From contig NC_092670.1 in the NCBI RefSeq assembly GCF_964355755.1, forward strand, positions 39,357,795-39,421,794: a stretch of DNA of 64,000 nucleotides. The letters are read 5' to 3'. The stretch comes from Antedon mediterranea (taxonomy: Eukaryota; Echinodermata; Crinoidea; Comatulida; Antedonidae). Under the pieces are notes generated by a model. The model did no database searches and was not told the origin of the DNA. It saw nothing but the letters and a program-made list of their open reading frames with translations. Shown here piece by piece: positions 588-31,293 of this stretch (position 1 is its first letter; the number at the start of each line of letters is the position of its first letter). Made by a program: the position numbers and the translations under genes.

Positions 588-3500
588 ATCAAGAAAATCC
601 TAATATTATATGTCCTGATAATATAACAGCAGAAACAGCACCTGGGTTAGGGTCAGGTTCTCCAGATTGGATAGTACCTGTACCCACTGACAATGTAGAA
701 CTTATGCCTACAAGTCCAGTAGCAAGTCCTGATGTCACTCCTCCTATAAGTATTGCTATTACAGGTAGTGTGCCATATGAGCAAACCTACACAGCTGAAG
801 ATACTGCAGGGAACACAGCTTTTTGTACATTCTATATCATAATTGAAGGTAAATGTTGTTACTACTAGGTATTAACAAAGTGGCAAAACACAACAACAAT
901 AATATTACCCAAAAAAAAGATGTAAATTGTAAAAGGAAAAAATTTCAGGAGCTGGGGTGAATCCTGATTTTGGTTTTATAATAAAGGGAGATTTTGTTTC
1001 CAACTTTACATTAGGTGATAGGGAAAAAAAATGGCTAGGTAGACTGCATAGCACATGGAATAGCAGTGGTAAATATGGATGTGGCACAACAGATCTCTTT
1101 CCATCTTGCCAAATTGTACATGTTTCATAAATATAAATATGCACAGTATATTAAAATAAAATAAATGATAATAAAATGCACATGTTATTAAATACATTCA
1201 GTGCAATAATTTAGTACTGAACAATTTTATGTATATTTAATAGATTTATTATATATCGCCACTAACAGTGTAAAATTAATTTTACAGACAAGGAACCTCC
1301 TGTTATCAATGACTGTCCTCCTGATCAGAATCTGGCAACGTCTTCTGGTGTGAACTACACTGCTGCCACCTGGACAGAACCCATAGCAATTGATAATGCT
1401 GGAACACCAACCCTTGTCTCAACACACAGTAGTGGTAGTGATTTTTACATTGGTAAAACTTTTGTGACATACACAGCTGAAGACAATTATGAAAATACTG
1501 CAACTTGTAATTTTACAGTAAACGTAGCAGGTTAGCTCGTACAAGATTGATTTTCTATTTCAGTACAAATACAACAAACAAAAAAACAGTGGTAATTCGA
1601 TGAAACATTTTTACCATGATAGGCTAATGCTCTTAGAATACATTAATGTTCTCATGGAATTTTGAAGTCTGATTTAGCAACTAGTTTACACAATCATTAG
1701 TAACTTACAAATGATTGTGTAAATAACACTATTAGGACTACCATACTAGGTTTGTACAGATGTGATAGGATTTTCAAAACTTTATGAAAACACTGTAACT
1801 AGAATGTTATTGACAGTAATGATCTTTTTAATTAGGTACGCATGCTCAGAATGTAACTGGTTGTCCGGAAGATTTCACATTACCAACTAACTATGGAAAC
1901 CCGAATCGAGTAACTTACTGGATTGAACCAACAGCAACGGATATTTCAGGAGTTGTTTCGACCTCATCGTACTCACACACACCCGGATCAACATTTGATC
2001 TGGGTAACACTATTGTTACGTATAATTTTACCGATACTTTAGGAAACGTAGCGTCATGTGAATTTATAGTAACCATTATTGGTGAGTATATAGGCCTCGT
2101 GTGAACGCACTAAAGTGAACTAAACGTGTAATATTGTAATATGTGGCTAAAGCTTGGTTCCCACTTGGACGCAATTTATTTGACAGAATTACGATCAACT
2201 GTCGCAATTGTGATTGGTAAAGCGTGGTTCCCACTAGAACGAAACGCAGCGACATATCGACGCAATAGTGCTGTAAACATCGTAGGTTTGATTTCACGCA
2301 GGCGGGGGAAAACACAATGAGTACAAATGATTTAAATATTGACTAAGAATTTATACATCTTTTGTTAAAGCCATCGGCGGTTAGTTAGAAGTCATCGTTA
2401 GTTTGTTTGTTTCTCATTCAGATCAAGAAAATCCTAATATTACATGTCCTGGTAATATAACAACAGAAACACTTCTAGGGACTTCATCGGGCTTTCCAGA
2501 TTGGACAGTACCTGTACCTACTGACAATGTAGAACTTATGCCTACAAGTCCAGTAGCAAGTCCTGACGTCACTCCTCCTGTAAATATACCCATTACTGGT
2601 AGTACACCATATGAGCAAACCTACACAGCTGAAGATACTGCAGGGAACACAGCTTCTTGTACATTCTATATCATAATTGAAGGTAATTTACCATTAGTAG
2701 GCCCTACATTGTATCCTAATAACAGTATAAATGAACTTTAAATGGCCTTAAACATACATTTATACGGTAAGATATTAAAAAGGCACAACATGATTATGAA
2801 ACAACTGATTTGGTAACATGGAAATCTGTACACGTAACATCGCTGTTAAAGGTACGTCAATAATAATGTGCAAAACGAAATGTTACAGGTATATAAACAT
2901 GTTTGATTATGATATCATGATCGAACAAGAAAGAATTTAATTTGCAACGCAGTATGTAGCAAACTATTGCAAAACAACTAATCAAAGGCTTCATAAATGG
3001 AATGTGAAAATGAATAATGTATGTGACTTGTGGGGTAATTGAAGACGAAAAACACATGTTTTTTGAATGCATACGAAATAAAACTTTATGGACAAACATA
3101 GATAACATTTTTAAAAATATTGACAATGGCAGAAGCTCTTTTAGAGAACTTCTTTTAGGGTCTGATTGTGAATACAAAAATGACTTATATTCAATTGCTG
3201 TCTTCTCAATATATAACATTAAGATTTTAACTGAATTAAACAAACCAGTGTGTAAAAACTCTTGGATTGTATTTAAGTCTATTGTTAAGGATCTGAACAA
3301 ACTAACGCTCATGTAATGTTAAAAGAGTTACCGGTACCTAATAATTTTTTTTTATTTATTTTTTTTTTTTTTTAAACGTTGTTTTATATCTTTGTATATA
3401 ATGTCTATAAGATGTATATAAATGGTATAAATTAAAAAGGGTATGAAACAATACGGTATGTATATTGTCTGTGTACAATGTGAATAATAACAAACCATGA

Positions 3501-6500
3501 AAGCAGGAGGATAATATTGGAAACAATATGTGAAAAACTAAAATTTACAAAAATTACTGATATTTTTTTTTGAGCAGAAAAATATAAAGAAAAATGTAGA
3601 ATATTAACGGAAAACAATATAATTAAAGAAAGAACATATGAAGACAGATATTACTGATTTATTTGTAATGTATTTAATTATGATATGAAAGAATAAAGGT
3701 GGTGGTTCACGCCACAAAAGAGAAAAAAAACTATTGCAAAACAATCTCTAAATGATGATTTAAAATGATTTGATAGATACTGAGGCCCCGTTTGTGAGTG
3801 ATTGTCCTGAGGATTTCACATTGCCAACAGACAACGGCGAACCACATCGAGTTACCTACTGGACAGAACCAACAGTAACGGATAATTCAGGAAGTGTTTC
3901 TATCTCTCAGTCACACACAACTGGCTCAACATTTGATCTGTATAACACTACAATTACATATAATTTCACAGATTCTTCAGAAAATGTAGCATCATGTACA
4001 TTTACAGTAACAATTATTGGTAAGTAATTATTATGGCTAGCCTAACGTTACTTTTGAATACATTTATTCCATTTTATTATCAATGTGTCAGTATAAAATG
4101 AATAATCATGAAGACAATATTTCGAGTGACATGAATGTTTCCCTTCGGTCCAAGAATCTGTCATAACCATTTCTTGATAATATTCATTATTGCATAGAAG
4201 ATTGTCTTTTCCCTTTGAATCAGTAACTAGGCCTCTATACATTTATACGATTTAAAGAAAATGAAAAACTCTAACTTAGACTTAAACTCGAGTCCTACCA
4301 TAGACTACACTAAGAATTTACAGTACAGTACTGGCACGTTATCAGCGGAACATTAGTAGTTCTGAATTGATACGCCCACATATTTAGTTCTGCATTACAG
4401 CAAAAACAAAATTATGTAAAACTGTTTTAGACCTTTTCTGTTGTAAAGATCAAACGCATTTGTTTATTCATAGATATTGAAGCTCCAGTACCTACTAGCT
4501 GTCCAAGTAATAGCACCTACAGTGCGGATATGGGAGTGAGTACAAAGGGTAATGTCGCATGGACGCCACCAGCATTCAATGATAACGTACCTGGGACAAT
4601 TTCTATTTTTAATAATATTTTTCCTAATACCTATACATTTCAACTCGGAACTACAGAGGTGGAGTATTACGCTACAGATGCAGCAATGAACACTGGATAT
4701 TGTACATTTTTCATAAAAATTGTAGGTAAGAAAACATTATTCAAATTGTATACTGTACTTTCCTCTTCACACCCACCCTGGTAGGTACTTTTGGTGAAAA
4801 AATGTATCTATTTATGAGTGTTCCAAATTCCCTTAATTTCTGGTGCTCTTTGACAATATTAGTTAATGTATAGAAGATTGATTATTTTGAAACATTATAC
4901 AAAATTGTTTAATCTTATATAACATTTTATTATCTTATATAACATTTTATAATCTTATTCTAGACACTGAGAATCCTGTTGTAACTTGCCCGAGTGACAT
5001 CATCACCAACTCAACCCATGGCACCACAACTGCTGGAGTGACATACAACGCAACGTCAACTGACAACGTTAATATAACTTTTGAAAGTTTTAATATTCCT
5101 TCTGGGTCGATGTTTGAATCTGGTGAAACTACTGTGATTTTTATGGCGTTGGATTCATCTGATAATCAAGGAACATGTTCGTTTACTGTCACAGTCGTAG
5201 GTAAGGTGTACGCAACCCGTCTACGGCAAAAACATCAAATCCGTCTACGAAAATGTTGATTTATAAGGACGATGAAGTAAACACTGATGAATCGAACGAG
5301 GGCATGTTTCGTTCTATCTATTGCATATTATATGTATTGTATCTTAAGCAAACGTAGGCTAAATCATGAAGGCAATCCTACATTATACAACTTGTGTCTT
5401 ACAGGACCACTTTGTACTAAGCAATGTAGTAATGGTGGGACATGTACACTCAAAAACGACATAGAAGAATGCAAGTGTGAGAGCGATTTTGAGGGTGATA
5501 ATTGTGAAAACAGAAAAAAAGGTAATTGCACGTTTTTAAATCAACCGAATATTTCAAAAAAAATATCACAACACTAATAGCAGATATTTTAGACATCTGT
5601 GTCTCTTCATTGACAGTGCAATGGAGCAATTATTCGATCATGGGGACAAATTCACCGCCAATCACATCAGATCATTTTTGGTTTAATAGTAGTTCAACTT
5701 CCAAAAAAGATTACAACAGTTATCATGTTTTTATAGCTTCCTCTTCAATTTGGCTCAAGATTGCAATAGGATTGTTCTTTGCCGGTGTTGTTATTGGGGC
5801 GTTGGTTGCTGCTGGAGTCGCACTTCATTATAAAAAGTCTACAAAGGTCTGTAAGATACTATTAGTATTGGAGAATGTTTGCTTGTAAGACAAGCGAATT
5901 TCACGTTACCTTTCGCATGCACCGTATTTAAAATAAATTGTAGGCCTACGTCGGATTATTACTCGTTATAATTTGAGAACATGCGCTATAACTAACGCAT
6001 TTAAAAATCTACGTCGGGTTGGGAACAAAACTATATAGGCCTATAATACAACCATATACTGTAGTATAATAGGCTACTGAACATTCAAGCTTAAACTGTA
6101 ACTAATACAGCAGTTTATATCAAACGATGTTTTCAATACTAATACACATTATAAAAATATAGTGTTTATTGAATTTATTTGTTAATACTGTAGTTATTTT
6201 GATGATAAATTCGTTATTCACAGACAACACCGGCTGAAAACGGAACTATTGATTTACGACAACCTGATGTAAGTTTGATAACTATACAAAATATCATCAA
6301 AATTACCATACATCACTACTTATTTCTGTAATTTTCTAAACTTTTTTTGTTTGCATTTTTTGCAACAGACACATACAGAAACTCGAGAATTGCACGAATA
6401 CATGACAAGTATAGAGCCAGAGGGAATAGGCAATGACACACAGCATACGTATGCGACTATTGAAGACGCGGTGGTTGAAGAAACAACCGAAAATGAAACG

Positions 6501-6533
6501 ATGTACATTAATGTTAAATCCAAAAAGAAATGA
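588..6533 (+). CDS. Receptor gene 1 (5' partial): HYR-rich, EGF, TM, tyrosine-tail membrane protein
   Basis: Eleven exons: 588-848, 1288-1530, 1836-2081, 2422-2682, 3777-4019, 4474-4725, 4964-5200 (seven HYR domains), 5405-5521 (EGF), 5737-5846 (TM), 6224-6268 and 6369-6533 (tail, stop TGA). Every HYR exon starts and ends in phase 1 and carries the family pattern: CP near the start, a W[TI].P..TDN stretch, and a final (S/N)xxxCxFxxx strand. The EGF exon has six cysteines with the CSNGGTC core. The TM exon gives about 23 hydrophobic residues followed by HYKKSTK, a stop-transfer sequence, so the tail is cytoplasmic. The tail holds HTYATI and TMYINV. No signal peptide or lectin exon lies in the first 587 bases, so the 5' part is presumably upstream, as in genes 2 and 3. 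The ligand is unknown; the receptor role is inferred from architecture. Confidence 0.8.
2147..2320. repeat. Family A element, rearranged copy in gene 1 intron
   Basis: Two left-end-like starts occur in a row (AAGCTTGGTTCCCACTTGG at about 2150 and AAGCGTGGTTCCCACTAG at about 2219), then the TTTGATTTCACGCAGGCG box. It ends without a right terminus, next to the duplicated pre-exon flank. Confidence 0.65.
2860..3740 (+). mobile_element. Non-LTR retrotransposon 3' remnant
   Basis: Lies in the large intron between the fourth and fifth HYR exons of gene 1. Positions 3017-3316 read as 99 codons with a C...EDEKHMFFEC..NKTLW pattern, the cysteine/histidine box found at the C-terminus of many LINE reverse-transcriptase proteins. 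The upstream part is closed by stops in every frame, so only the tail of ORF2 survives. A T-rich stretch and an AATAAAGG-containing end follow. I see no target-site duplication. Confidence 0.55.
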
Positions 6534-7602
6534 ACGTACACAATTTGCTGTAAAAGAATGAATTATGAAAACTTCTTCCGCAGTCACAAACTGATATTGC
6601 AGCTGTATTATTGTTTTTATTTGTAAACCATACATTATTAAGTTGTCAAACTAAATTAGAACTATAAATAATTGTATTGTATTATATATTTATATTAGTA
6701 ATTGTATAGTTTACTAAAAGTAGGCCTATACTGAACGCATGGTCGATTGGCAGAAGAAATGAATACACATGTGATATCGTCAATGTAAAACTTTTTAAAT
6801 GGATTCTTCAGTTGTTTTAAATATAATAATAATTTATAAGATATGTGATATTATTTACATATAAAATATGTGATATTGTTTAAAGTTTTTATAATGTTTT
6901 AATATATTTTATATACAGTAGTTTTAAATATTGTAATCCATTCTATTAGTGACGGGTTTCCCGCTCTCGATGATGGCCCCTAGGCCTATACTATAAAACC
7001 AAAGTCAAATTACTGAAAATTGGCAATGCTGTGGGTATCATTAGCTGAATCAGCCACTGATAGTTGATATAAATATATTGATATAACGTGATACCGATTG
7101 AGCCAATGAAACAAGAATCATCGTGCCCATTTCATCACCTATATCAAAATTATTATTACTTATCAGTTATTTGTAATTGTACATCAATTCGAGCGATAAT
7201 GATAACTTCTTAATCAAGTTTACAATAGTTATCACAAAGTTGAATTGCATACTTACCATCATAAATACTCATCAACATTATTGTGATTGAATTATTATTG
7301 GACCACTGATGTCATTATAACAATTCTAAACGAGGGGAGAAGTAAACATTTATATATCTGACATAATAAAGTGACCATCCATGCATATTAGATAGTTCTG
7401 CAGCATTTTAAACTTGTACAATAAGAATTAGTTTAACAAAAATAAAATCACAAGGTTCGAATTAAAAGGACATAATCATGTGTAGGCCTGTGTAATGTTT
7501 CTGTTATTTCCAATCACTGGTGTTTATAAAACTAATAAGAATATAAGTATAATATTTTGTAGCCCCTTGCATTTAAGCATTAGATTCTATTCGGCAAAAG
7601 TT
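6534..7602. other. Spacer between receptor genes 1 and 2
   Basis: AT-rich 3' flank of gene 1 and 5' flank of gene 2, with no exon recognised. Near 7183-7226 it holds a short match, TCAATTCGAG followed by ACTTCTTAATCAAGTTTA, to the fossil of the NDUFV1 3' end that follows gene 2 (see 15500-15840). Confidence 0.5.
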
Positions 7603-10600
7603 ATGCTGACTTTGGTAAATTACATTATTTTAAGCCTAACTTTAGGCGTTGTTTATGCAGGTAAGTTTACTATTCGTTTGTCCGTTTGTTACCTGTCTTA
7701 TGTGTTTTAAATTTCACAAAATTATCTAAGAATCTCATGTTCTTCTGAGATAAATTTTCCTAAAGAATTAGATAGTTACATAAACTGATTCAATAGTGTG
7801 ATGGTCACATGAATGATTAACTGTAACTGAGGACACTCAACAACACTGTAAGCTAATTAATTTAGTTGATACAACTAAAAAAAATTTTTTTCTATTGAAA
7901 TGAATAACTTTTTTTCTACTAAAGTGAATAACTGTATTAAAACTACAAAATAACCTATTCAAAATCTGATTTAATTAATCTTCTGATTGACTCATTCATG
8001 ATCCATTAATTTAAATACTGTTTACTCTTTTTGTTAATGTTTTTTGAGGAACTGAGCCTCGATATGCTAAGGTTTACACTGCGATGCGCTTCACCTGTAC
8101 AAGATATTTTATAATAATACAAATCATCTGGAGACCAGGTGATTTAGTGTATGTAAAGACAAAATGACTGTTTGAAACATTCGATTGTATTTTGCAGGGC
8201 ACTGAACGGAAATATCATTGACTTATGTTCTTCTCTTTTTCTACTTATTTATTGCAAGTAGGTTGCCCACCTGATTGGACAACATACGATGGAAGCTGTT
8301 ATTTATTCGGTACTGCCGGTAGCCAAAATTGGCAAACAGCTAGAACTAACTGTCAGAGTCTTGGAGCTGATCTTGTTGTGATAAGCAATCGAGCAGAAAA
8401 TGATTTTGTCGGTTCACTTATTTCCACAAAAGCATGGATTGGCTATAGAGATATAGATGAAGAAGGTGAATTTATTTGGGTAGACACCTATGGTGAATGC
8501 TCCACTTATGAAAGTAATAACTTTTTTACTTTATATTTTTAAATATTGTAGCAACAACATAGCCTACAGTGTTTATAAAATAAAGGGACATAATATGGGT
8601 ATAGGGATACGTAGGTACGTAGTAATGTAATTGTTACCACCTATACATGACGTCATTTCATATAGGTCTAAGCAGCAAATAATCAAACAGCTATTAAATA
8701 ATTACCAGATTTTCGTGCCGGTGAGCCAAATGACTTTGTCTATGAAGATTGTGTTATGATGCACATGGATACCCACGAATGGAATGATGTATGGTGTAAT
8801 GGCACGGGTAATTTTATTGGTTATGTATGTGAAATATGTAAGTAGTTGTACAATTTGTTATTTTTGGTTTTTTTTTATACGTTTGGTTGTGGTATAACTT
8901 AAATAAATGATTTTTTTTTTCATGGAGGAGAAAAAATGTGTTTGTCCATATACCACCCACTCATCTTAAAACCAAATTACTTAATTATCTCAATATTTAT
9001 TTTTTAAATAATTTTGATATTCAAAATGTGTGTAGTTGGTCGCTTTCTTGTCGATGCTTTTATTGTAGAACGTAATTTATTTATTTTTCTCTGTTCTGGG
9101 TTGACCAACTAGAGCATAGGTGTTTAGCACCTGTTTGGTCTTTCCGTGCCTCCTTTTATAATTGTTTTGTCTTCTTTGTTTATGTATATGGCAGAAATTG
9201 AATAAATTAAAAAAATAAATTAAAAAAAATAAACCTATATATAAATATTGCATAATACTGCATGAAGATAAAAAGCTGTCTGTCTATGAAAGTGTGCTGC
9301 CAAAGACAACTAAATTGTTGGAAATTAAGAAGTAGGGTTCACTCGGCAAAATAAAATTGTATTGAACTCGAATAGGGGAGTAATTGCAAACGTCAACATC
9401 GTTCATAATTTGTCTGTAAAGTATGTAAAACGGACTTACGGTGTTTCACTATCATCACTTATTATATTTTGTGTTTTTTCAGTTGATGATTCGGACAATC
9501 CGATGTTCACTTACTGTCCACCGCATCAAACTGTTGCAACAGATCCCAATGTAAACTTTGCAACGCTATCATGGGATCTACCCACGGTTGATTTGGACAA
9601 CCAATGTGGCATAGCATTGACCTCAAACTATGACATTGGAAATCAAGTTGCTTTGGTTTCTGGTCTTACTACTACTATTACTAATACATACGTGGCAACA
9701 GATCCTAGTGGAAATACTGGAACGTGTACATTTTCTATAACAGTTACAGGTAAGGAATTTTTGTTTTATTACAATAATTAGTTTATCGGCAGTACTGTAA
9801 AATATTAATTAACTGAAGTAACCTATTTCTGCAGTTGTGTTTGCAAACTATTGTCTCATTGTTGGAACACGTGTCTAAATACCATTTTTAACGGCTTGCG
9901 ACTTCAATTTGATTGAAATCTCTGAATATTTTAAAGAAACATAAAGATTGCTACATTCAAACTTTGTATCAGTAATACAAAGTAAAATCTAAAAATAAAA
10001 GTGTTATACCACACTATTGAATCGAATTATATTAGATATTGAAGATCCCAATGTATTCGATTGTCCGGAAGAAGACTTTATATTACCAACAGACGATGGC
10101 GAACCTAATCGAGTAGCCTACTGGGCAGAACCAACAGCAACAGATAATTCAGGATATGTTCATTTGTCTCAGTCACATAGGCTCGGTTCAACATTTGATC
10201 TGGGTGAGACGACTACACTTACATACAATTTCACAGACCCTTCAGGAAATGTGGCATCATGTAAATTCAAAGTAAAAATTATTGGTAAGTATCAATAAAG
10301 GACACCGGCTTTAAGTATAAATGTGTTCCTGTTCATTTTAAAGCATCATTGTTTGACTACTGCAGGATTGTACTGTAGTCACAAAAGCTTGGTTCCCGCT
10401 AGCGACGCAAAGCAACGCATCGATATATTGACGCAAAATGCAGCACTGTAAGCTTGGTTCCCACTAGCGACGCAAACTACGCAACGTAAGAAAATGCCCT
10501 TACAATACTTGTGTTTCCCTCGCCTGTGTGAAATCAAACCTGTGATGTTTGCAACACTGTTGCGTAGTCGGTTCCCACTTGTGATTACGCAATCCAGCAC

Positions 10601-12483
10601 GTTGCGTCAATACGTTGCTGCGTTGCGTCGCTAGTGGGAACCACACTTTATTGGGAACCGACGAAACAACACAGTGCTGCTGCAGACCTCACAGATTTGA
10701 TTTCACACCAGGCGCAGGAAAACAACAATAAACAATAATAATTTCTATTATTATTTATATGATAATAGACAAATAAAGCTTTTCAGTATTCAGTATTCTT
10801 TATCAACATGGTTGGAAATTCTACACTAAATTATCTAATGAATAGATACGTATGTTCCTAATGTAATCGGTTGTCCTCAAGACTTCTCATTGTCAACTGA
10901 CGATGGTGAACCAAGAGTAACCTATTGGACGGAACCAACAGTAACTGATAATTCAGGAGTTGTGTATGCCTCTCAGTCACACACAAATGGCTCAACATTT
11001 GATCTGGGTGAAACTACAGTTACGTACACGTTCACTGATTCTTCAGGAAACGTGGCGTCATGTGAATTCACAGTAACAATTATTGGTAAGTATCCATGTA
11101 CAATGTGGCATTGATATCACTAAAGCTTTGTCTACACTATCAAACTAGTTTGACAAAAAAAAAGTGTGATGTGCCCAAATATGGTAGTGATATGCACAAA
11201 TATGGAAGTGATATTACATCATCATGTCCATATGTGGGCACATCACTTTTTTTTTGTCACATAAATGTTGATAGTGTAGACAAGGCTTTAGATGAAGAAA
11301 ATGACATTACAAACAATTTGATTCAAGCGGATATATGCCGTTTCTAATCAACTGAATTGAAAAAACTCGTTACTTTCATTGCAAATGTGTTGTATTGTGA
11401 ATATAGCTAGCACTCATACTGCATTTATGACCGAATACAATTTTGTAAGTTCGCTCCTCTCAATTGACTTGCGCATAAATATGATCACTAGAAACCAGGC
11501 TCTTCTCCGGGATTGTGTATTTTGCCGAACTTCGTTTTACAGGACCAATGTGTGATAAGCAATGCAGTAATGGTGGAACGTGTAAGGTAAACAATGACGT
11601 AGAAGAATGCAAATGTCTGGATAATTTTAAGGGTGATAATTGTGAAACAAATAAAGGTAATTTTACGTTTATACAACAAAAAAATAATTATGGTATACAG
11701 AAGAACAATTATTCGCTCACGGGTGGCGATTACATCACCTAGTCCCTCCGTCACAGATGCTACGCGGCGGTCAAAATTGTTTGTTGGGCCTAGACGTAAT
11801 ATAAAAATAATCGTTGGTTTTTTTTTTATAGCTTTTTCCTTCAGTTATCTTGAGATTGCAATAGCACTGTTGGTTACTGCCGTTATTGTTATTGTAGTGG
11901 TGGTTGCTGCCGGATTCGCATTTAAATACAAACAGGTTTGTGTGATCACAGTTTGCCAGCAAGTAGTTTTGCGACACAACATACGCCAATTGTTTTAATT
12001 TAAATTAGTGTGACGTAGGCCTAATAGTATGACGTAAATTAATATATAATAATAATAATTACCGTATTCACTATAGGCCTACCATCAGATTGGGAACAAT
12101 ACATTATCAGTATATAGGACTACATTACGGTATCAAGCATACGACGAATTATCTTATCAATAACTATATATTCTAATCTTAATAAGAAAGTATTGTGAAA
12201 TTTAAGTTATTTTATAATTAACTCTACATTCACAGACGACACCTGATTCGGGACAATCTGATGTAAGTTTATTTGCTAAAATATTCTTCCATGTTATATA
12301 ATTTTCTATTCAATGCTATATCCGTCATCCTTTGCGCAATTCTTGTTACATTTCTAAAACGTTGAAATTGTTTATTTTAAGGCAAATACGGAGACTGGAG
12401 AAATTCATGAATACTCACAAAACATTAGGCTAGAAGGCGTACCAGTAACCAATGACGTCACACATACGTACACAACTTTGTAA
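7603..12483 (+). CDS. Receptor gene 2: C-type lectin, three HYR, EGF, TM, tyrosine tail
   Basis: Ten exons, 513 aa: 7603-7660 (signal peptide), 8262-8513 and 8709-8837 (C-type lectin), 9483-9749, 10036-10284, 10846-11085 (HYR), 11543-11656 (EGF), 11832-11935 (TM), 12236-12262 and 12382-12483 (tail, TAA). The ATG at 7603 is preferred over one at 7495 because it aligns with the start of gene 3 and gives a compact signal peptide ending VVYA. The lectin fold shows WIGYRDID, then EPN and WND, the calcium and sugar ligands of mannose-type lectins. The second tail exon ends HTYTTL at the C-terminus. The first HYR is of a distinct type (DDSDNPMFTYCPP start) shared only with gene 3. Probably a type I surface lectin; an immune or recognition role is inference. 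Confidence 0.85.
8262..8837 (+). other. C-type lectin domain of gene 2 (two exons)
   Basis: Exons 8262-8513 and 8709-8837 encode about 127 residues. Cysteines start at CPPDW and GSCY, with later ones at EDC, DVWC and YVCEI. The intron falls just before the EPN half, as it does in gene 3 (18452-18727 and 18958-19083). EPN with WND predicts mannose- or GlcNAc-type binding with calcium. An additional cysteine (YGEC in gene 2, TTEC in gene 3) sits between WVD and EPN. Confidence 0.85.
10384..10730. repeat. Family A element, compound copy in gene 2 intron
   Basis: Two left ends (10387 and 10450) and a right end (GCTAGTGGGAACCACACTTT near 10628-10648) are followed by another partial internal segment up to the TTTGATTTCACACCAGG box. 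Appears to be one element inserted into, or recombined with, another. Lies between the second and third HYR exons. Confidence 0.65.
11121..11290. repeat. Family B foldback element, gene 2 intron
   Basis: Family B elements are 110-190 bp with ends like TAAAGCTCTGTCTACACTATCAAAC in inverted orientation. Inside are short direct motifs (ATATGGTAGTGATATG, GATGTGCCCA, GACATCATCATG) and no ORF. This copy is complete and sits between the last HYR exon and the EGF exon. A similar copy lies in the same intron of gene 3. Confidence 0.8.
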
Positions 12484-12634: not shown

Positions 12635-12640
12635 AATAAA
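12635..12640 (+). terminator. Probable polyadenylation signal of gene 2
   Basis: AATAAA about 150 bases after the stop, in the context GCAAATAAAGT. Gene 3 has a similar AAATAAAGT context at 24235, about 230 bases after its stop. Confidence 0.4.
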
Positions 12641-12642
12641 GT

Positions 12643-12782
12643 ACTAAAGCGTGGTTCCCACTAGAACGCAACGCAGCGACGTATTGACGCAAAATGATGT
12701 ATTGCGTAATCACAAGTGGGAACCGACGACGCAACAATGTTGCTTTAGAGGCTTTAGAGGCTCTAGACAGCACAGATTTGTA
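12643..12782. repeat. Family A element, left half
   Basis: Left terminus and the ATTGCGTAATCACAAGTGGG centre are present. The right half is missing after about 12780. Confidence 0.65.
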
Positions 12783-14638
12783 GCACACATGTTGTACACA
12801 TACTTGAGTTAGTTTCGAAAACAAATCATTCGATATGTAAAAAGACAAACGTATCTATATATAAATTATGGTTAATTCTGACATAGGCGAGCACAAGAAT
12901 CAGAATATATTGTGGGGAATAGTATTATAAAATTACATAGGGAGATTTGATGATAAGACATTTTTCGAGTGAAATCCCGATAGCTGAGTTTTATTGAGTA
13001 AGCTTGTAGGAATAACTGTAGGCTATCTTCCTGTGTCCCGTTAGGACCGAGATGTCTGCCCATATTGCAAGCCGTAGTGTCTTCTTTCTTGGGCCCACTC
13101 TGTTACGGCAGTTTCAAAAGATGATTAAATTAAATAATGTATTAATAATTATTAGGATGGTATTCATTTGAATAAACGCCTCTCCAATAAAACATCACTT
13201 TGAATAATAAACCACCCCCCCCCCCCAAACCCAACTATCCAATAAACGTCCATCCACATATTTATAATAACACAATTATACTATTTGCTATATATAAATT
13301 TACGTAAGGGCAAAATTCGGTAAATCGCGCGTTATTTCTAGAATGTTTACTCGATGGTATATCAAGTTGGTTCGTACTTTCGGTACTGATTTTAACCACC
13401 TGATGTAACCCTGTTTACTAATTAAATTGAGTTCGATAATTAGTTATTGACAATTAAAACGAATTTAGGTTCAACGATTTGCCCCAGATAGGGGTGTTTT
13501 TAGATCGTGCTATACACAGTCTAATGGATGTCCGTCTTGAAAAATACCCGCACACAATAATACAAGGATGCTTCGCATTTTCCTATCTCCTCCTACGATA
13601 GTTGTTTTTAATGGCTGAAAACCGGTTGAACAGCTCGAGTACAGCATCATAATGTTGAAGACAGGCCGATTTTCTTTAAAAAATTCCATTTTGATAGATT
13701 TAATATATGTTTATACAAATGTATTGATTTGCGATGAATGGAACATTCCAATCTCTGTTCCACAAGTGTCTATTCCCTCAGGCGTCGTAAAGGCAAGTAC
13801 TGTACTCATTTTTTTTTCAATCTGTGCTGCAGAGGTTGGATATACATTTTTTTTAAACGGATAATGAGCTAGCGTTTTCAGTCGCCGTATGTACAACTCT
13901 TTATTTATTGCAGTTAAACCACCCATATCATCACCCTTCCCCCACTGGCATGAGTAGCGTTGTAAAGACAGTAGAGGATAGGCTTACGGTGCATCACATG
14001 CCCTAAACGCAGAACAACTTTGGTGGGTAGGGTAGGAATTGGCTCTAGGAAACAATTGAAACCATTAGGCCTACTAATTAAGTTGAGTTAGATAATTTAA
14101 TATTTATTGACGATTAAATCGAATTTATGATTTTCCCCGAATAGAGGTGGTTTTCCCAAATTGTTTTACATTATATAAACAACACGTCGTAGTGATGTAT
14201 CGTTACATGTACTGTACTATTTCAATCGACTAGGACGGTGATAGTTTCAACAAAGTATTACATCGCAATGTTTTACTGTGTTTAGTGGTATATTATTTGT
14301 AAAACATGAAAACAATTAATATTTCGTTACTAAATGGATAAAGAACATATTTAAAAATTGTTCCTCTTTGCACCCATCCTCTTCCCCATCCCTCAACCCT
14401 AATGTTGCATACAAAACACAAATTAAGTTTATTTAAATTTGACTAACAATTGGTCTCATTTTGTGACAAGTTTCTCTTTCGGAAGTAATTCCCAGGGTGC
14501 TAATTTTAGGTGAGTACATAAATCAGTGTCTATTTATTCGTTCCTGTAAACGACATGGATTATTGTACGTACATTTGAAATCGCCAGTTTTTTAACGCTG
14601 AAATTATTATGTATTCGAGAACCATCTGTGGGCACGAC

Positions 14639-14675
14639 CTAGATGGTACGCGAGCGAAGCGAGCGTACCATCTAG
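14639..14675. repeat. Hairpin 1: 13-bp stem with GAGCGAAGCGA apex
   Basis: Perfect 13-base arms (CTAGATGGTACGC and its reverse complement) flank GAGCGAAGCGA. The apex contains GCGAAGC, a sequence known to form an unusually stable DNA mini-hairpin, flanked on both sides by GA that could form tandem sheared G.A pairs. ATTCGAGAACCATC lies 12 bases upstream. Confidence 0.8.
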
Positions 14676-15138
14676 TCTACAAAATTTACCAAGCATTTGT
14701 TATTCTTTTTTACCACTTTTCATATCTACTGTATTAGAGGATTTCATTTGATTATAAATGTTACCATTATTATTGATCACAACCGCTCTTGACAAGAAAT
14801 TTTTCCGCGCATTCATAACAGTGATGTTATTGTTATTGCATTGTCAGCTTTCCACAGAATATCTGGGATCCACGAGCTTTGGTGGATCGATTGCTTATTA
14901 TTAAAACTAAAAAATTTAACATATATCTCTCGAATAAGCACCTCCCTCAAATGACCTCCGCCTCCCCAAAGGGCCCTACCAAACAATAAAAACTATACTT
15001 TAAAATGTTATTAATCATCTAAAACACTGTGAAACAAAGTAGTTTAGTTTTACGAATGTCAAGCATTTTCAATAATGGTAACCGACAGAAAATGTATAAG
15101 GAGAACATTATCATTCCGAGAACCATCGTCTACACTTC

Positions 15139-15175
15139 CTAGAGGGGGAGCGAGCGAAGCGAGCTCACCCTCTAG
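15139..15175. repeat. Hairpin 2: same apex, different stem
   Basis: Arms CTAGAGGGGGAGC and GCTCACCCTCTAG pair over 13 positions with one mismatch, around the same 11-base apex. Same total length (37) as hairpin 1 and exactly 500 bases from it. ATTCCGAGAACCATC lies 11 bases upstream. Confidence 0.8.
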
Positions 15176-15499
15176 TGGTAAGAAGTATAGTATTGTTGCA
15201 TACGTTTGACAACAGCAATCCATATAATAATAATAATTATAATAAAGAATCAGTCGGTTTGTATTATTCGTGCGACAACGTGAGAAACAGCTATTTGTTT
15301 TATAAATGAACGAATTTGTGTTTTTTAATTTAATATTTCTCCAATTTAAGTAAAGACAATATCGTAAAAATGACGTTTTTGGTTTGGTGATGGGTGATCG
15401 ATAATACAAATTGTTTAATCTGCGTTTGTAGTTTAACATTACAGATTTATAAAAAATGAATTGTTTTTTGTATTTATTATTTCATTTGAGGATGTGTGC

Positions 15500-15840
15500 G
15501 AAAATAATGATGATGCGATATAATAACAATGATGATCACATCGCGTAACGATCATCAAACTGGAAAGTTGTGTAGTCAAGATTTAAAAACTATGTAAAAA
15601 ACGTTTCCGATAAAGTCATAATCTTACCATCTCAGTTTATTAACACAATAAGATGAATGAGATATTATCATATCCATGTGAAGTGGTCACCAAACCAAAC
15701 AACACATTGTGAAACACATCTTTTTAAAGTATATTGCAGACTGTTGTACATTGTACATGTACATTGCCTAGAATATTTTAATTTCTCTAAAAGTTCAATC
15801 AACTCGAGGTTGATGTTGCTTGTGACTTCTTAATCAAGTT
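15500..15840 (-). pseudogene. Fossil of the NDUFV1 last codons and 3' UTR
   Basis: On the minus strand, about 15800-15825 reads AAG TCA CAA GCA ACA TCA and then ACC TCG AGT TGA. The NDUFV1 terminus reads AAG TCA CAT GCA ACA GCA and then ACC TCG AAT TGA. The match continues through the 3' flank: GTGAAACACATCTTTTTAAAGTA, GCCTAGAATATTTTAATTTC and GTCACCAAACCAAACAACAC occur in both places, and weaker similarity runs to about 15500. The coding match is cut off at about 15845, just before a family A element at 15871. It lies after gene 2 as the real NDUFV1 end lies after gene 3. Confidence 0.75.
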
Positions 15841-15870
15841 TACCATACCATTTACCGTAAAAAAAAAACC

Positions 15871-15951
15871 TGTGATGTTCCCACTTGTGATTACGCAATA
15901 CAGCACTTTGGGTCGTCGCTGCGTTGCGTTCTAGTGGGAACCACGCTTTAG
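15871..15951. repeat. Family A element, right half
   Basis: Has TTCCCACTTGTGATTACGCA and the right terminus TAGTGGGAACCACGCTTTA. It borders the NDUFV1 3'-end fossil. Confidence 0.65.
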
Positions 15952-16040
15952 GTTTGAGGTGTTTGAGGACAGAGTAACGCCGAGGAGGTAGGTGGTTTTC
16001 AACGGATTCTAACGTGTGTTCGGCTAACTAACCACTATTA

Positions 16041-16248
16041 ATCGTGGTTCCCACTAGAACGCAACGCAGTGACGTTTTGACGCAAAGTGCTGTATTGTGC
16101 AATCACAAGTGAGAACCGACGACGCAACAGTGCTGAAACATCGCAGATTTGATTTCACGCAGGCGGGGGCAAACACAATTATTGGAAGGGCATTTTTTAA
16201 AGTTGCGTAGGTTGCGTTACGTTGCGTCGCTAGTGGGAACCACCCTTA
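16041..16248. repeat. Family A element, near-complete
   Basis: Both termini are present (TCGTGGTTCCCACTAG and CTAGTGGGAACCACCCTTA), about 365 bases upstream of the start of gene 3. Confidence 0.75.
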
Positions 16249-16612
16249 CTAGACTGTAAGTAAATAATTAATCCGGTGAACATTGTCACTTCACCATACC
16301 TGAGAGAGCGCGGATAGAGAGAGAAATATTGAAATGTTATATTGTGGACAAAGTAATCGTCCATGCATACGTTCATGTATTGGGTATAATTTAAAAAAAA
16401 TTTAAATATGAACATAAATCTAAAATTAATGCAAAAAGAAATTACAATGCTAGGATTAACGTACATGAACCGTACGGCCTATTATTTCTAAACGCCAGTG
16501 GAATGGTTGATGTTATAGTGTAAGCTGATTATATAACAAATAGCCTATGTGTAGCGTCTTTTTTCTTCAATAATTAGTTTGTTATTAGACAAAAGGGAAA
16601 GTAGGCCTAAAG

Positions 16613-19600
16613 ATGCCGACTTTGTTGCATTACATTATGCTAAGCCTAACTGTATGTAATGTGTATGCAGGTAAGATTCTTTTTATTCGTTCAGCTATGT
16701 TTCTATAAATATAATACGAGTATCTACGTTTTTTATGACAAAAATAAACACACTGCTTTTGTAAAACTCCTCCCGTATGGTTAAATTGCTCGTCAGATAT
16801 CGAAAAAAATACAGAACCTAATTCAAATGAAGCGTCGGTCATGTGGACGGTACCAACTGTAACTGATGATAGGCTACTACACCGCTAGAAAGTCTTGTTA
16901 CACACGTAATATACAATCGTTAATCGTTAATATACAGCGTTGGCAATTCAAAATATATTTTTCTTTGATACAGAATCCGATGTAGTCACCCTGGACCAAA
17001 GAATAGACAAACTTGCGCCCGCTCTTCTTCCATTTAATGATTTTCACGCTGCTACTCTAGCCCGCTACGTCACAAGAGATGACTCATTCTTTAGCTGAAA
17101 GCAAGCAGCAGTTTTAGTACTAGACACTGACGTTTTTGCTAAAATGGAAACTCGACTATAATTTATAGGTCCCAGCTGCTGGACCCAAAAAAAACTCTGG
17201 GAAAAGAGTCTATTAGGACATGTCATGCTAAAACTACAAATCCCAAAGCATTTCTGGTATTTATGAGTCCCATTTGACTATAATACTGTTCGCTGTCAGA
17301 TAATCATTGAATTATTATCAAAACAGTCTATTAAAGTTTTTATTTGTAATAGGATACTTCATACTTGAAGTATCTAGGCGTGATGAAGTGACTCCCAGAC
17401 TTGACCTTAGCAAGTGACAGAAATTGAGTCTGTTTTTTATATCAAAGTTAGTCACTTCTGTAACAAAAAAAAATATTTATTCACGTATAAAAAGAGAAAA
17501 GAAACGTTTAATTATAACCCAAAAACCATTGTCTGACAGACAATTTAAGTATTTTTGCTTTAAATTACATTTTTTTTAGGTACAATAACTATTATGTGAC
17601 AATAAAATGACACATTCAAAACAAATTGGAAATAAAAAATATTTTCCAGAGGGATAATGTATCTTTAAAACTGTTACGTCATAAGCGAGCAGCGTTTTTT
17701 GTAAGAAATATTTCTTGTTATTGTTTACGTGGGACTATCGACATTATAAATTATGAATAAAGTGGTGCAAGTTAAGACTTTTAAGCAAGTTTAATTTCAA
17801 ATTTCATCATGTACAGGTCTATTATGGTGTGTCGTTGCATGATCCAAGAACCACGTCAATCCTACTCAAGTTATCACATTACATTGTTACATCTTAATCA
17901 TTAATTCTTGCTATCTCATTCGAACACAATACAAACTAGTATGGCACTCAGAGAGCGCAAATCTCCACCTGGAAATAATGTCTCATATTTAATTATAATT
18001 GTATGTCTTCTGCCATATTTTATTGTTATGCGTGTTTCATTTGTATGTTTATTCTGTTTGTTGTGATTTCATTGGATTTAAGTTGATTTTTCTTTCTACT
18101 TTATGGGCTATCCTTGGTTTCTTATTTAATGGATTTGCTTGTAAATTGTTTGTATTCACATTTTAATCTTGTGTTGAAACCAAATCAAATCACAAATCAC
18201 TGTTATTAAGCTGCGAATGGTTGCATTCGCATCAGATAAATGATTCGCGTTCATAGGTCTAATTTTTGCTTTGTTCAAAAATAATTAACCCGTACTTCTT
18301 TCGTATCTTCGTCATGTGCTAAAAAAGTAGATCCCATACCATTTTTTTAACATAAATAAAAAATAATACTTTTTATTACTGTACTACTATATGCATTTGT
18401 TTTATCAATTCATAGTATTATAGAATCCACTTCTATATTATATGCATTTAGCTTGCCCGGCTGATTGGACACCATATGATGGAAGCTGTTACATATTCGT
18501 TGCCGTTAGGCCTACAAACTGGCAAACATCTAGATCAGCCTGCCAGAATCATGGAGGTGATCTTGTTGTGATAAGCAGTCAAGCAGAAAATGATTTTGTT
18601 GGTTCACTTATTATTGCTCTACCAACAAACGACCATTGGGTTTCAGCGTATATTGGTTATAGAGATATAGATGAAGAAGGAGAATTTATTTGGGTAGACA
18701 CTACTGAATGCATCACCACTTATACAAGTAAGAATGAAGAGGTTTTTACTGTTATCATTGCAAGTTAAAACACACAATTTACATTTGAAAATAAACGATT
18801 TAGGGGAGGCTATACATTAGGAGTAGATCTATAGTACAGCACAAGAATATAAATATGGTAAGACCTGTGACGATGAAGTAATGATGTTTATCTATCGATG
18901 AAGTCATATCATATTTATATAAAATTAAAAACAATAACGTTGTTATAAAATTCGCAGACTTTCGTGATGGTGAACCAAATAACCGAGCCAACGAAGATTG
19001 CGTTGACATGCACGCGGACACGCACGAATGGAATGATATATGGTGTAACGGGACTCATACTGACGGTTATATTTGTGAAATATGTGAGTAATCTGTAGGC
19101 CTAAGTTCTTTATCAGAAAGAACATTTGTAGTGGTGCAATTATTATTTTTTATCTTAAAAACCTGTGCTGCATTGGTTAATGTTGTTAGTTGTCTGAATT
19201 ATTGTTATTATATTGTTAATGTTCTCTACTGAACGACTTTGGAAATCAATGCTAGTAATCAATCAGTAAGACAGATTAGATAAATAAATAAAAAAATAAT
19301 GTACTGGTATACGGTACCGAGTTTTTACTTTACAATTACGTCTTTAATAATTAATATACAACCTACTATTATTTGTTAAGAAAATGTTCCGATATTTACC
19401 ACCTCCGAGATCCTACTTTTTTGGGGGATCGAGGTAGGCCTAATCATGTCAGTAAGACCTGTAGTAGTAGAGTGACGACCCACTTAATGATAGAGGTTAC
19501 CTAAATGTATTCATTGCTAATTTTCAAATAAACTCAAATAGTTGCAAACGTCATCATCATTTTCATTTTCTACAACATTATCTGCTAAAAAATGGAAATA

Positions 19601-22600
19601 CAATAGAACCTCTAAAGACACCTTCGGGACCCCAAACACATGTCCTCTTAATAGGGCCCTCAACAAACTAACATTGTTTTCTCGGAAAAAAGAAGAAGAA
19701 ATAATAACCAAACTGAACAGTAATTGATATTGAATCACGAAATTGAGAATAATTGAAAATTAGCAGCCAATCTTTGAACAATATATATTATTATTATCAT
19801 TTTATTTCACATTTTTTCAGTTGATGATTCGGATAGTCCAACATTTACTTACTGTCCGCCAGATCAAACAGTTCCAACAGATCCTAATGAAAACTTTGCA
19901 ACGCTATCATGGGTTGAACCAACGGTAGATGAGGACAACCAATGTGATATATCGATTGTCTCAAACTATGACATTGGAGATCAAGTTGCTTTGATTTCTG
20001 GCCTTACTACTACTATTACTAATACATACATAGCAACAGATCCTAGTGGAAATACTGGAACGTGTACATTTTCTATAACAGTTACAGGTAAGACGTTTTG
20101 TTTTATTATAATAAATTAGTTTAGTACTTTAATAATTGATTGCAGTAACCTATTATATTTGTAAACTAGCAAACTTTTTGGAAAAACTCTAGGCCTACCT
20201 GGTTTTTGACGACTAGATAATCTAATATTGTGCACAATTAATTAGATGTCAGTGATAATATTTGTTTAATAAAATTTTTAGGTTTAAAAACCTACCGTTA
20301 GTGCTTGAATAGTAGATTAAATAAATTGTATTTCATAGATTTGGAAGCTCCTAATGTATTCAATTGTCCTGGAGATTTCACATTGCCAACAGATGACGGC
20401 GAACCAGATCGAGTAACCTACTGGACAGAACCAACAGCAACGGATAACTCAGGAAGTATTTCTGTCTCTCATTTACACACCTCCGGATCAACATTTGATC
20501 TGGGTGAAACTACAGTTACGTGTAGGTTTATAGACCCTTCAGGAAACCTGGCATTATGTACATTTACAGTAACAATTATAGGTAAGCATTAATAACATCA
20601 AGTATATGTTGTTTTACAACACAGTCAACGGAAGGATTCCGCTGTCAAGTAGTAGTGTCACCTGACATCAAGAGATCCGTCTACTATCATATTTAAATAC
20701 CATTATTAACGAAAACATTGTCTGTGATATGATTATATCGATAACGGAGATCATCAAAACGTTAAAGGATTCAAATTGTTTGTCAGTACGCACTACGTCA
20801 ATAGCTTCTCTTCTCTCAACTTCAATACCGCTAAACACATATAAGTTTTAAATTATATGGCACTGCTCTCAATGTCATTAAATATTAACTAATCACATTC
20901 TTATCTATCATCAGTAATGATAGGCCTATAACAACATTTTAGTGTTTAGTGTTTGCACTGTCACATGACTTTGTAAATCTATGTGACAGAAACTTGTAAA
21001 TTATTTATTGAATAGATACATATGCTCCTGATATAATCGGTTGTCCACTGAGCTTCATATCGCCCACCGGCGTTACCGAACCAGATGGAGTAACCACCTG
21101 GACAGAACCAACAGCAACGGATAATTCAGGAACAGTTCCGATCAGATCACGGTCACACGCACCTGGATCAACATTTGATCTTGGTGAAACTACAGTTACG
21201 TATACGTTCACAGACTTTTCAGGAAACGTGGCATCCTGTACATTTACAGTAACAATTGTTGGTAAGTATATCTTAGGTTCCTGGCATTTATAAAGGTACG
21301 GTACCTCTGTCTTTTTTTACGGCGTGAAATTATTTTGCGAAGGAAGGACATTTGTCCAACTGTCGCGGTTGAGGGTAGGCTTGTATTTGTCAAGCAGTGT
21401 CACTTGACATAGAGATATATCGTTGGTGGTGAGGTACGCGTCAAAGCCGTAAATGAACACGTTGGAGGTGATACGATCATAACGAAGGCAAAGATAGATG
21501 ACAACGTTACAAAATGATTTATGTTATTAATTTCGTATTATAACACCATTATATAGATACATATTTTCCTAATGTTATCGACTGTCCACAAGACCTGACA
21601 TTACCAACCGACGATAACGAACCAAGTCGAGTAACCACCTGGACAGAACCAACAGCAACGGATAATTCAGGAACAGTTCCGGTCAGATCACGGTCACACG
21701 CACCCGGATCAACATTTGATCTTGGTGAAACTACAGTTACGTATACGTTCACAGACTTTTCAGGAAACGTGGCATCGTGTACATTTATAGTAACAATTGT
21801 TGGTAAGTATATCTTAGGTTCCTGGTATTTACAAAGGTACCGGTACGGTACCTCTGTCTTTTTTTACGGCGTTCGATTATTTTGCCAATGAAGGAACATG
21901 TTGGTCCAACTGTCGCAATTGAAAGTAGGGTTGTATTTGTCAAGCAGTGTCACTTGGCATATTTAGAGATATATCGTTGGTGGTAAGGTACGCGTCAAAG
22001 CCGTAATGAACACGTTGGAGGTGATACGATCATAACGAAGGCAAAGATAGATGACAACGTTACAAAATGATTTATGTTATTCTTTTCGTATTATAACACC
22101 ATTATATAGATACGTATTTTCCTAATGTTATCGACTGTTCACAAGACCTGACATTACCAACCGACGATAACGAACCAAGTCGAGTAACAACCTGGACAGA
22201 ACCAACAGCAACGGATAATTCAGGAACAGTTCCAATCAGATCACGGTCACACGCACCTGGATCAACATTTGATCTTGGTGAAACTACAGTTACGTATACG
22301 TTCACAGACTTTTCAGGAAACGTGGCATCGTGTACATTTATAGTAACAATTGTTGGTAAGTTTCTAGTTTGACAATTACAACGACGAAAATGACCGTACA
22401 AAAGAAGATTCAACTGACGATAAACAATTACTTTTTTTTAATAAGGAAGTAAAATAACTCGTACATATTTCTGACGAGTACAATTTTGGAAGCTCGCATT
22501 TGCAATCTCTCCAAGACTGAGAACACCAGGAACCAAATTTACGCATGTACAATCAATATAAACCAAGCCCTAAAGCTCTGTCTACACTATCAAACTTTAT

Positions 22601-24003
22601 GTGACAAAAAAAATGCATATATATGTACATGATGATGTCATATCACTACTATATTTGGTCATATCACTACCATATTTGGCACATCACACTTTTTTTGTCA
22701 AACTAGTTTGAAAGTGTAGACAGAGATTAAGCTTGAATTATCTACAAACTTCTTCTTACAGGATCAATGTGTACTAAGCAATGTAGTAATGGTGGAACGT
22801 GTAAAGTAATCAATGACGTAGAAGAATGCCAATGTGCGAGTAACTTTGAGGGCGATAATTGTGAAAATAAAGATAATTGTACGTAATTCGAAAAAAATAT
22901 TTCGAAAAAAAAATCAAAATATAGGCCTAACTTAAAATTTAGAAAAATGTTAATATAATCCAGGCAATAATTCAGTCATTAAGTCAATGCCTACGTTATT
23001 AATGTTTTAGTAATTAATCAAGCTTTATAATCTCTTTATACTGTATTATGAAAACTACGTTCTTTTGCCCGACTTTAAGAAGAACAAATTATGAAAAAAA
23101 TAAAAATATAATTAAATACTACGATGTTCTAAATATTTAATGTGTTTTATGTCTATTCAATAAAATTGCAAAATATGTTAAAATTATAGTACCTGGTACA
23201 ATTTGTTGTATAGTTTCCTTCCATGCCCAAGACGTAATTATAACAAATCTTTTTTTACAGCTTTTTCGTTAAGTTTGATAGAGCTTATAATAGGAGTTTT
23301 GTTTGCATGCACTGTTACTGGGGTGTTGGTTGGCATCGCATTGAAGTGTAAAAGGGTTTGTAAAATATTTTGGAAATTATTACTCTTTTAACTATTATCA
23401 TACAGTAGGCATATATACCAAACAGATGATCTAGTAAATAATATTAATTCACATCATAGGCCTAACGTAATTGTAGTTTTGTAAATTTCACAAAATAGAA
23501 AATCAAATTAATTACTTACTTTAGAAGACGGTTTTAGCATAACCACGGAAACGTCGACATATTCTCGACTTTATTTATATTTTCTTTGGCAACACGTGTA
23601 CTGCAAATGTTACTTTATTATTACCGTATAATATAGTATGCACATTTTTAAAATAACTCGTTTACTTACCTTTTACTTACAGACACCAGCTGAAATAAGA
23701 ATTACTGATTCAAGACAAACTGATGTAAGTTGCTAAAAATATACCGCATTAATTTATATACACACTCAACTCTTATTATTGAACAATTTCTTATACTGAA
23801 TTTCTAGTAGGCCTACTTCTCATACTCAGACAGTTGTTGTTAGGGCAGAAACGTTGTAAAACGCTAACTGTGTTTTGTTTCATGCAAAGGCACACACGGA
23901 GACTCGAGAATTACACGAATACGCAAGGAGCATCGAGTCAGCGGTCATAGTCCATGACAATCCACATACGTATACAACTTTGCAACTGCCGACGACACGG
24001 TAA
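16613..24003 (+). CDS. Receptor gene 3: C-type lectin, five HYR, EGF, TM, tyrosine tail
   Basis: Twelve exons, 691 aa: 16613-16670 (signal peptide), 18452-18727 and 18958-19083 (C-type lectin with EPN and WND), 19821-20087, 20339-20581, 21016-21261, 21557-21802, 22110-22355 (HYR), 22762-22878 (EGF), 23261-23355 (TM), 23683-23724 and 23890-24003 (tail, TAA). Same order and phases as gene 2, with two extra HYR cassettes from recent duplication. The normal EGF splice donor has changed from GT to AT; I end the exon six bases later, at a GTACGT that keeps phase 1, so that boundary is less certain. The tail ends HTYTTLQLPTTR. Intron 1 is long (1.8 kb) and contains a broken HYR exon. The stop codon faces that of NDUFV1 about 790 bases away. 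Confidence 0.83.
16787..16873 (+). pseudogene. Broken HYR exon in intron 1 of gene 3
   Basis: Reads C-SSDIEKNTEPNSNEASVMWT followed by VPTVTDD, the first half of an HYR domain, and then meets a TAG. There is no second half and no donor. It lies between the signal-peptide exon and the lectin exons, where neither gene 2 nor gene 3 has a working HYR. Confidence 0.55.
16974..17097 (+). other. Unassigned open exon-like stretch in intron 1 of gene 3
   Basis: After a TTCTTTGATACAG acceptor-like site, the frame continuing phase 1 from the signal-peptide exon is open for about 41 codons (starting ESDVVTLDQRIDKLAPALL) and ends at TGA. No family recognised. Joined to exon 1 it would give a secreted peptide of about 60 residues. 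It may equally be transposon debris. Confidence 0.25.
17430..17675. repeat. Family C element, truncated
   Basis: Family C is about 320 bp with ends TATTGTCCCCCAAAA / TTGTGGGGGACAATA and internal boxes AACCATTGTCTGACAGA and AATAACTATTATGTGACA. Both boxes are present here, but the left end is missing. Confidence 0.55.
21016..22360 (+). repeat. Tandem triplication of an HYR exon plus its intron in gene 3
   Basis: Three consecutive units begin at 21016, 21557 and 22110 (periods of 541 and 553 bases). Exon and following intron are both nearly identical between the second and third units, including the intron text after the donor (TATATCTTAGGTTCCTGG). The first unit matches from about residue 28 onward but differs strongly over its first 25 codons. 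This is a recent cassette expansion, possibly with gene conversion. Confidence 0.85.
22571..22730. repeat. Family B element, gene 3 intron
   Basis: Complete copy between the last HYR exon and the EGF exon, the same intron position class as 11121-11290 in gene 2. The centre and orientation of internal motifs differ, so it may be independent. Confidence 0.75.

Positions 24004-24790: not shown

Positions 24791-31293
<6,503 letters not shown>

What the first reader, a model, noticed from the sequence alone, without database searches (positions are those of the whole stretch)
588..24003. Tandem cluster of lectin-HYR-EGF membrane receptors with an expandable stalk
Three paralogues lie head-to-tail. 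The two complete ones share the order signal peptide, C-type lectin (EPN/WND), a special first HYR, n further HYR, EGF, TM helix, short tail. HYR number differs (at least 7, 4-like order with 3, and 5), and every extracellular junction is phase 1, so exon shuffling is frame-neutral. HYR, EGF and lectin domains are known separately. I know of no named family with this exact architecture and tail, but I cannot search. A recognition or immune receptor system is inferred.
Basis: partly seen in the sequence, partly recalled or inferred. Interest (0 to 1): 0.85.

Follow-up and report, generated by a model that had tools for sequence, protein, structure and literature searches.

The report
Lectin receptors patched from GPCR exons
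An animal genome carries a tandem row of small cell-surface receptors, two of them tipped with a sugar-binding lectin domain, whose outer parts are assembled from exons shared with giant neighbouring receptors, one of them an adhesion GPCR, and joined to their own membrane anchor and tyrosine-containing tail.

Summary
Window genes B and C splice into open 513- and 691-aa proteins (signal peptide, EPN/WND C-type lectin, 3 or 5 HYR, EGF, one TM helix, short tail) with GT-AG sites. All extracellular junctions are phase 1. A conserved juxtamembrane micro-exon was missed. Three corrections follow. (1) The cluster has at least six head-to-tail units over ~56 kb. Gene A has 12 HYR and no lectin, another unit carries an LDLa module, and some units look degenerate. 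(2) The HYR and lectin exons are not private. HYR1 of B and C matches HYRs beside lectins in a giant gene 200 kb away (81-95% aa). A's later HYRs match that gene's HYRs 14, 15, 19, 20, 21, and A's first four match the first four of a second giant HYR-SEA-TM gene. The first giant is an adhesion GPCR (GPS plus 7TM). A distant GPCR paralogue has HYR 14, 15 and 20 in the same order, so the GPCR context is older. (3) The tail exon is found only in this cluster. Best reading: compact glycan-binding type I receptors made by exon shuffling and conversion, selectin-like in layout, signalling inferred. No expression data and no sign of positive selection, so an immune role is unproven.

The parts
588..5200 (+). 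Gene A, HYR exons 6-12 (588-848, 1288-1530, 1836-2081, 2422-2682, 3777-4019, 4474-4725, 4964-5200); HYR 1-5 and the signal-peptide exon lie upstream of the window (-3673 to -158)
   Evidence: Own HYR HMM, splice phases and spliced translation; gene A is open only if frameshifted HYR2 is skipped
5405..5521 (+). Gene A EGF exon
5737..5846 (+). Gene A transmembrane exon
   Evidence: Kyte-Doolittle peak 2.46; phase 1 in, phase 0 out
6224..6268 (+). Gene A juxtamembrane micro-exon (TTPAENGTIDLRQPD)
   Evidence: Homologous phase-0 exon in A, B and C
6369..6533 (+). Gene A tail exon, tyrosines EYMTSI, TYATI, MYINV (YxN)
   Evidence: relatives of this exon found only in this cluster
7603..7660 (+). 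Gene B signal-peptide exon
   Evidence: Paralogous exons at -32120, -24310, -19127, -5130, -3673 and 16613
8262..8837 (+). Gene B C-type lectin, two exons (8262-8513, 8709-8837), EPN and WND motifs
   Evidence: Pfam Lectin_C on the spliced domain
9483..11085 (+). Gene B HYR1-3 exons (9483-9749, 10036-10284, 10846-11085)
11543..12483 (+). Gene B EGF (11543-11656), TM (11832-11935), micro-exon (12236-12262) and tail (12382-12483, ends HTYTTL)
16613..16670 (+). Gene C signal-peptide exon
16763..16882 (+). Relic of an N-terminal 'PVW-type' HYR exon between the signal peptide and lectin exons of gene C
   Evidence: HMM hit over positions 3-37 of 83 only
18452..19083 (+). Gene C C-type lectin, two exons (18452-18727, 18958-19083), EPN and WND motifs
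19821..22355 (+). Gene C HYR1-5 exons (19821-20087, 20339-20581, 21016-21261, 21557-21802, 22110-22355); HYR3-5 are tandem duplicates
22762..24003 (+). Gene C EGF (22762-22878), TM (23261-23355), micro-exon (23683-23724) and tail (23890-24003, HTYTTLQLPTTR)

Best explanation
The cluster encodes type I single-pass receptors whose ectodomains are mosaics of phase-1 exons shared with two giant neighbouring receptor families. Shown by sequence: a signal-peptide exon and an EGF-TM-micro-exon-tail end unit shared by A, B and C; between them either lectin + special HYR (B, C), or an N-terminal HYR series (A), or an LDLa module (upstream unit), followed by a variable HYR stalk. The lectin, HYR1 and stalk HYR exons match an adhesion GPCR ~200 kb away on the opposite strand. 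A's first four HYRs match a HYR-SEA-EGF-TM gene ~250 kb away. Inferred: the lectin binds a mannose/fucose-class glycan with Ca2+, the HYR stack sets its reach, and clustering leads to phosphorylation of tail tyrosines. So a GPCR's recognition head was re-mounted on a single-pass signalling end, giving a selectin-like layout. The likely role is glycan recognition or adhesion (microbe, cell or gamete).
For: Complete spliced frames for B and C. Lectin and HYR called by Pfam. Best outside matches of cluster HYRs: B/C HYR1 to GPCR HYR1/3 (81-95% aa); A HYR6, 7, 10, 11, 12 to GPCR HYR14, 15, 19, 20, 21 (91, 83, 80, 89, 58%); A HYR1-4 to HYR1-4 of the second giant gene (44-57%, in order). DNA identity of 78-93% for the best pairs runs past the exon edges into introns. 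The giant gene has GPS (E 5e-15), 7tm_2 (1e-13) and an Ig domain. A distant HYR-GPCR at C1:6.555-6.597 Mb has HYR 14, 15 and 20 in the same order (59-72% to the near GPCR), and relatives of HYR14 occur at four more C1/C8 places, so the GPCR context is older. The tail and TM exons find relatives only in this cluster. The spliced lectin hits CD23, DC-SIGN and mannose receptor chains.
Against: No transcript data. B and C lack the YxN motif that A has. None of the A-C tails matches a strict ITAM or ITIM. Gene A has a frameshifted HYR2 exon, and one upstream tail has stops. Synonymous divergence differs by exon (lectin exon 1 dS ~0.2, exon 2 ~1.1 against the GPCR), so repeated exchange or conversion is as likely as one founding event, and its direction is not shown for every exon (HYR19 is absent from the distant GPCR). 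Tail signalling is inference.
Confidence: 0.6

Rival explanations
1. The cluster is mainly a decaying by-product of unequal exchange between two giant HYR gene families: truncated or mosaic copies, mostly not functional.
For: Frameshifted HYR2 exon and a broken second signal-peptide exon in A, a relic HYR in C, an upstream tail with stops, isolated tail copies at -25704 and -25187, a unit without a detected EGF.
Against: B and C are fully open over 10 and 12 exons with intact splice sites. dN/dS is mostly 0.15-0.5. Lectin residues, TM, micro-exon and tail are conserved.
Confidence: 0.2
2. A diversified immune or allorecognition receptor repertoire, with copy number, HYR count and N-terminal module varying between individuals.
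For: Tandem paralogues, variable modules, EPN/WND lectin, tail tyrosines (TLYMTV, TYATI, MYINV), recent duplications.
Against: No polymorphism or expression data. No sign of positive selection in the lectin, with loop-exon dN/dS 0.2-0.5 for comparisons that involve the cluster. Strict ITAM/ITIM not met in A-C.
Confidence: 0.25
3. Structural adhesion or extracellular-coat proteins related to hyalin-like HYR proteins, with no signalling role.
For: HYR arrays are typical of extracellular matrix proteins (general knowledge); the neighbouring family has HYR, SEA and EGF domains.
Against: A conserved cytoplasmic tail with a shared tyrosine framework and a juxtamembrane micro-exon.
Confidence: 0.15

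Closest known systems
Selectins
   Same: N-terminal C-type lectin, EGF, variable number of small repeats, single TM, short tail (selectin features from general knowledge)
   Different: Stalk repeats are HYR, not CCP/sushi; EGF sits next to the membrane, not beside the lectin; tail unrelated as far as seen
Adhesion GPCRs with HYR ectodomain (same genome, C1:39.567-39.602 Mb and 12 further GPS loci beside HYR arrays)
   Same: Lectin, HYR1 and stalk HYR exons closely related to cluster exons
   Different: Ig, GPS and seven TM helices instead of the cluster's EGF and one TM with its tail
HYR-SEA-EGF-TM giant genes (same genome, C1:39.04-39.15 Mb)
   Same: First four HYRs match gene A HYR1-4 in order; EGF next to the membrane, single TM, tail tyrosines
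   Different: SEA and Ca-EGF domains; that membrane-proximal EGF is split by an intron; no similar tail
SVEP1/Polydom proteins
   Same: Contain HYR and EGF domains (PMC12549020)
   Different: Sushi, vWFA and pentraxin domains, secreted; no C-type lectin or TM tail

Membership tests
Adhesion GPCR | GPS motif | tested here: not met
   No GPS hit in the cluster; nearest good one at C1:39569554
Adhesion GPCR | Seven TM helices | tested here: not met
   One strong hydrophobic helix besides the signal peptide in the A, B and C models
Selectin | C-type lectin domain at the N-terminus | tested here: met
   Genes B and C only
Selectin | EGF adjacent to lectin followed by CCP repeats | tested here: not met
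   HYR follows the lectin; EGF is membrane-proximal; no CCP hit in Pfam
C-type lectin with Ca2+-dependent mannose-class binding | EPN and WND motifs | tested here: met
   GEPND...EWND (B), GEPNN...EWND (C); binding itself not tested
ITAM or ITIM immunoreceptors | ITAM (two YxxL/I, spacing 6-12) or ITIM (S/I/V/L at -2 of YxxI/V/L) | tested here: not met
   HTYTTL (B, C) and HTYATI (A) have H at -2; no ITAM spacing (read by eye)
Grb2 SH2 docking (YxN) | pYxN in the tail | tested here: inconclusive
   MYINV in A and YINV in two orphan tails, not in B or C
HYR protein family | HYR domains above Pfam cut-off | tested here: met

The most novel reading that the evidence does not exclude
The locus is a working exchange system in which HYR and lectin exons move between giant 7TM adhesion GPCRs, a HYR-SEA receptor family and compact single-pass receptors, so that one ligand-binding head is read out by G proteins in one gene and by tyrosine phosphorylation in another, producing a diversified recognition repertoire.
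Probability: 0.25. Interest if true: 0.8.

Novelty: new variant of a known kind. Interest (0 to 1): 0.5.

Why it matters
It gives a case, traceable in DNA, where the sensing head of an adhesion GPCR appears on single-pass receptors with a different tail, using phase-1 exons. Exon pairs with DNA similarity that reaches into introns make the steps datable in sister species. It also points to a HYR/lectin adhesion-GPCR family for which the papers searched gave no description.

Tried and rejected
Organism: no hit for a tunicate marker (GH6), sea-anemone actinoporin or COX1. These are exon-wise searches; for GH6 and actinoporin no control genome rang either, so they are not proof of absence. let-7 places it in Bilateria. 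Positive selection in the lectin sugar-binding loop looked possible from GPCR lectin copies a/b (15 nonsynonymous and 3 synonymous changes in exon 2), but Fisher tests between exons were not significant and cluster comparisons gave dN/dS below 1 in exon 2, so it was dropped. The propeller-like exons of the upstream LDLa unit did not reach the Pfam cut-off (Ldl_recept_b E 0.08). Rfam found nothing in the window. Paper searches for HYR with lectin, EGF and TM returned none; HYR domain with adhesion GPCR returned one paper on choanoflagellates whose main text did not show the term.

Full report
What is there. The window lies at C1:39357795-39421794 of a 354 Mb animal genome. At 588-24003 there are three head-to-tail units on the + strand. 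I rebuilt the genes exon by exon. Gene B (7603-12483) gives 513 aa and gene C (16613-24003) gives 691 aa, both open over 10 and 12 exons with GT-AG splice sites. The order is signal peptide, C-type lectin in two exons, a special first HYR, 2 or 4 further HYR, EGF, TM, a micro-exon and tail. Pfam confirms lectin and HYR. Extracellular junctions are phase 1; the TM, micro-exon and tail junctions are phase 0.

Gene A is not a lectin gene. It starts upstream of the window (signal-peptide exon at -3673) and has 12 HYR, EGF, TM and a 54-aa tail exon with three tyrosines. Its second HYR exon carries a perfect 27-bp palindrome plus a short flanking repeat, a 34-nt insertion that shifts the frame. Skipping this phase-1 exon gives an open 1081-aa frame. 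Whether A is a pseudogene, an allele or a spliced-around gene is open.

The cluster is larger than the window. Upstream lie at least three further units with related signal-peptide, TM and tail exons, back to -32120. One has a HYR, an LDLa module (Pfam E 2e-6), exons that resemble but do not reach a propeller family, HYR, EGF, TM and tail. Others look degenerate. A search with gene A's tail found significant matches only in this cluster, and the TM search likewise.

The stalk does expand. C HYR3-5 come from tandem copies of exon plus intron (810 bp at 92%; HYR4 and HYR5 98% in protein), and A carries 671- and 371-bp repeated blocks.

Where the exons come from. I took HYR hits from the cluster, from C1:39.565-39.605 Mb, from parts of C1:39.04-39.16 Mb and from C10, and compared all with all. 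The gene at 39.567-39.602 Mb (minus strand) has two lectin-HYR-HYR blocks, 47 HYR in all by this model, an EGF, an Ig domain, GPS and 7tm_2: an adhesion GPCR. The first HYR of B and C is 81-95% identical to its HYR1/3 next to the lectins. A HYR5-12 match its HYR 19, 14, 15, 19, 14, 19, 20, 21, and the remaining HYRs of B and C match HYR19. A HYR1-4 match HYR 1-4 of a second giant gene at 39.098 Mb, in order (44-57%). For the GPCR pairs DNA similarity runs past exon edges, so these were copied as genomic DNA.

Direction. HYR14, 15 and 20 also occur in order in a HYR-GPCR on the same chromosome 33 Mb away at 59-72% identity to the near GPCR. Relatives of HYR14 at 61-65% occur at four more places on C1 and C8, and at 92% in the neighbouring HYR gene at C1:39.069 Mb. 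The simplest history is that these HYRs are old in the GPCR family and entered the cluster later. HYR19 is absent from that distant copy, so its direction is unknown. Lectin exon 1 has dS about 0.2-0.3 to the GPCR copies, exon 2 about 0.9-1.3, and HYR1 of C 0.15. That is what repeated exon-scale exchange or gene conversion would leave; a single founding event is not required.

How it most likely works. Shown: signal peptide, EPN/WND lectin, HYR stalk of variable length, one strong TM helix and a short tail. Inferred: Ca2+-dependent glycan binding, tyrosine phosphorylation on clustering and SH2 docking. Gene A's MYINV fits a Grb2-type YxN site; B and C carry HTYTTL near the end and lack it. The layout resembles a selectin but fails selectin membership because the repeats are HYR, the EGF is membrane-proximal and there is no CCP.

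What is not shown. There is no expression, polymorphism or binding evidence. Lectin dN/dS gives no sign of diversifying selection. The immune reading is therefore one option among recognition roles.

Novelty. No paper in the searched library combines HYR domain, C-type lectin, EGF and transmembrane, and HYR domain with adhesion GPCR gave one paper without a usable passage. The library is not complete, so this is absence in that library only. I rate it a new variant of a known kind: receptors made by phase-1 exon shuffling, with an unusual GPCR-related ectodomain.

Noticed in passing
C1 6.597, 6.660, 6.788, 6.921, 7.117, 7.187, 7.243, 7.295, 39.570, 39.643 Mb; C3 27.762; C4 22.197; C8 18.646 Mb: Thirteen GPS hits lie just downstream of HYR arrays on the same strand, suggesting a family of HYR adhesion GPCRs
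   Followed up: partly
C10:11862001-11912000 (L028-L032): Giant minus-strand gene or genes with several lectins, about 60 HYR, EGF and a TM with tail
   Followed up: partly
C7:2285068-2320980: Eleven near-identical GPS matches spaced about 3-6 kb apart
   Followed up: no
window about -2565 (upstream of the window, in L009): 27-bp perfect palindrome CAGGGAGTTGTTATTAACAACTCCCTG with repeated GTCCTAC flanks inside a HYR exon, like a small mobile-element footprint
   Followed up: partly
window 25028-25117: Two-copy 44-bp tandem repeat at 97%
   Followed up: no
window 27785-29400 (-): NDUFV1-like complex I gene (Pfam Complex1_51K); downstream ORFs look like zinc transporters (38049-42909, 49355-52005, -) and SDHA (59614-59904, +), by eye
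   Followed up: no
window -35512 to -34310 (upstream of the window): Single 401-aa frame with a weak Sulfotransfer_2 match upstream of the cluster
   Followed up: no
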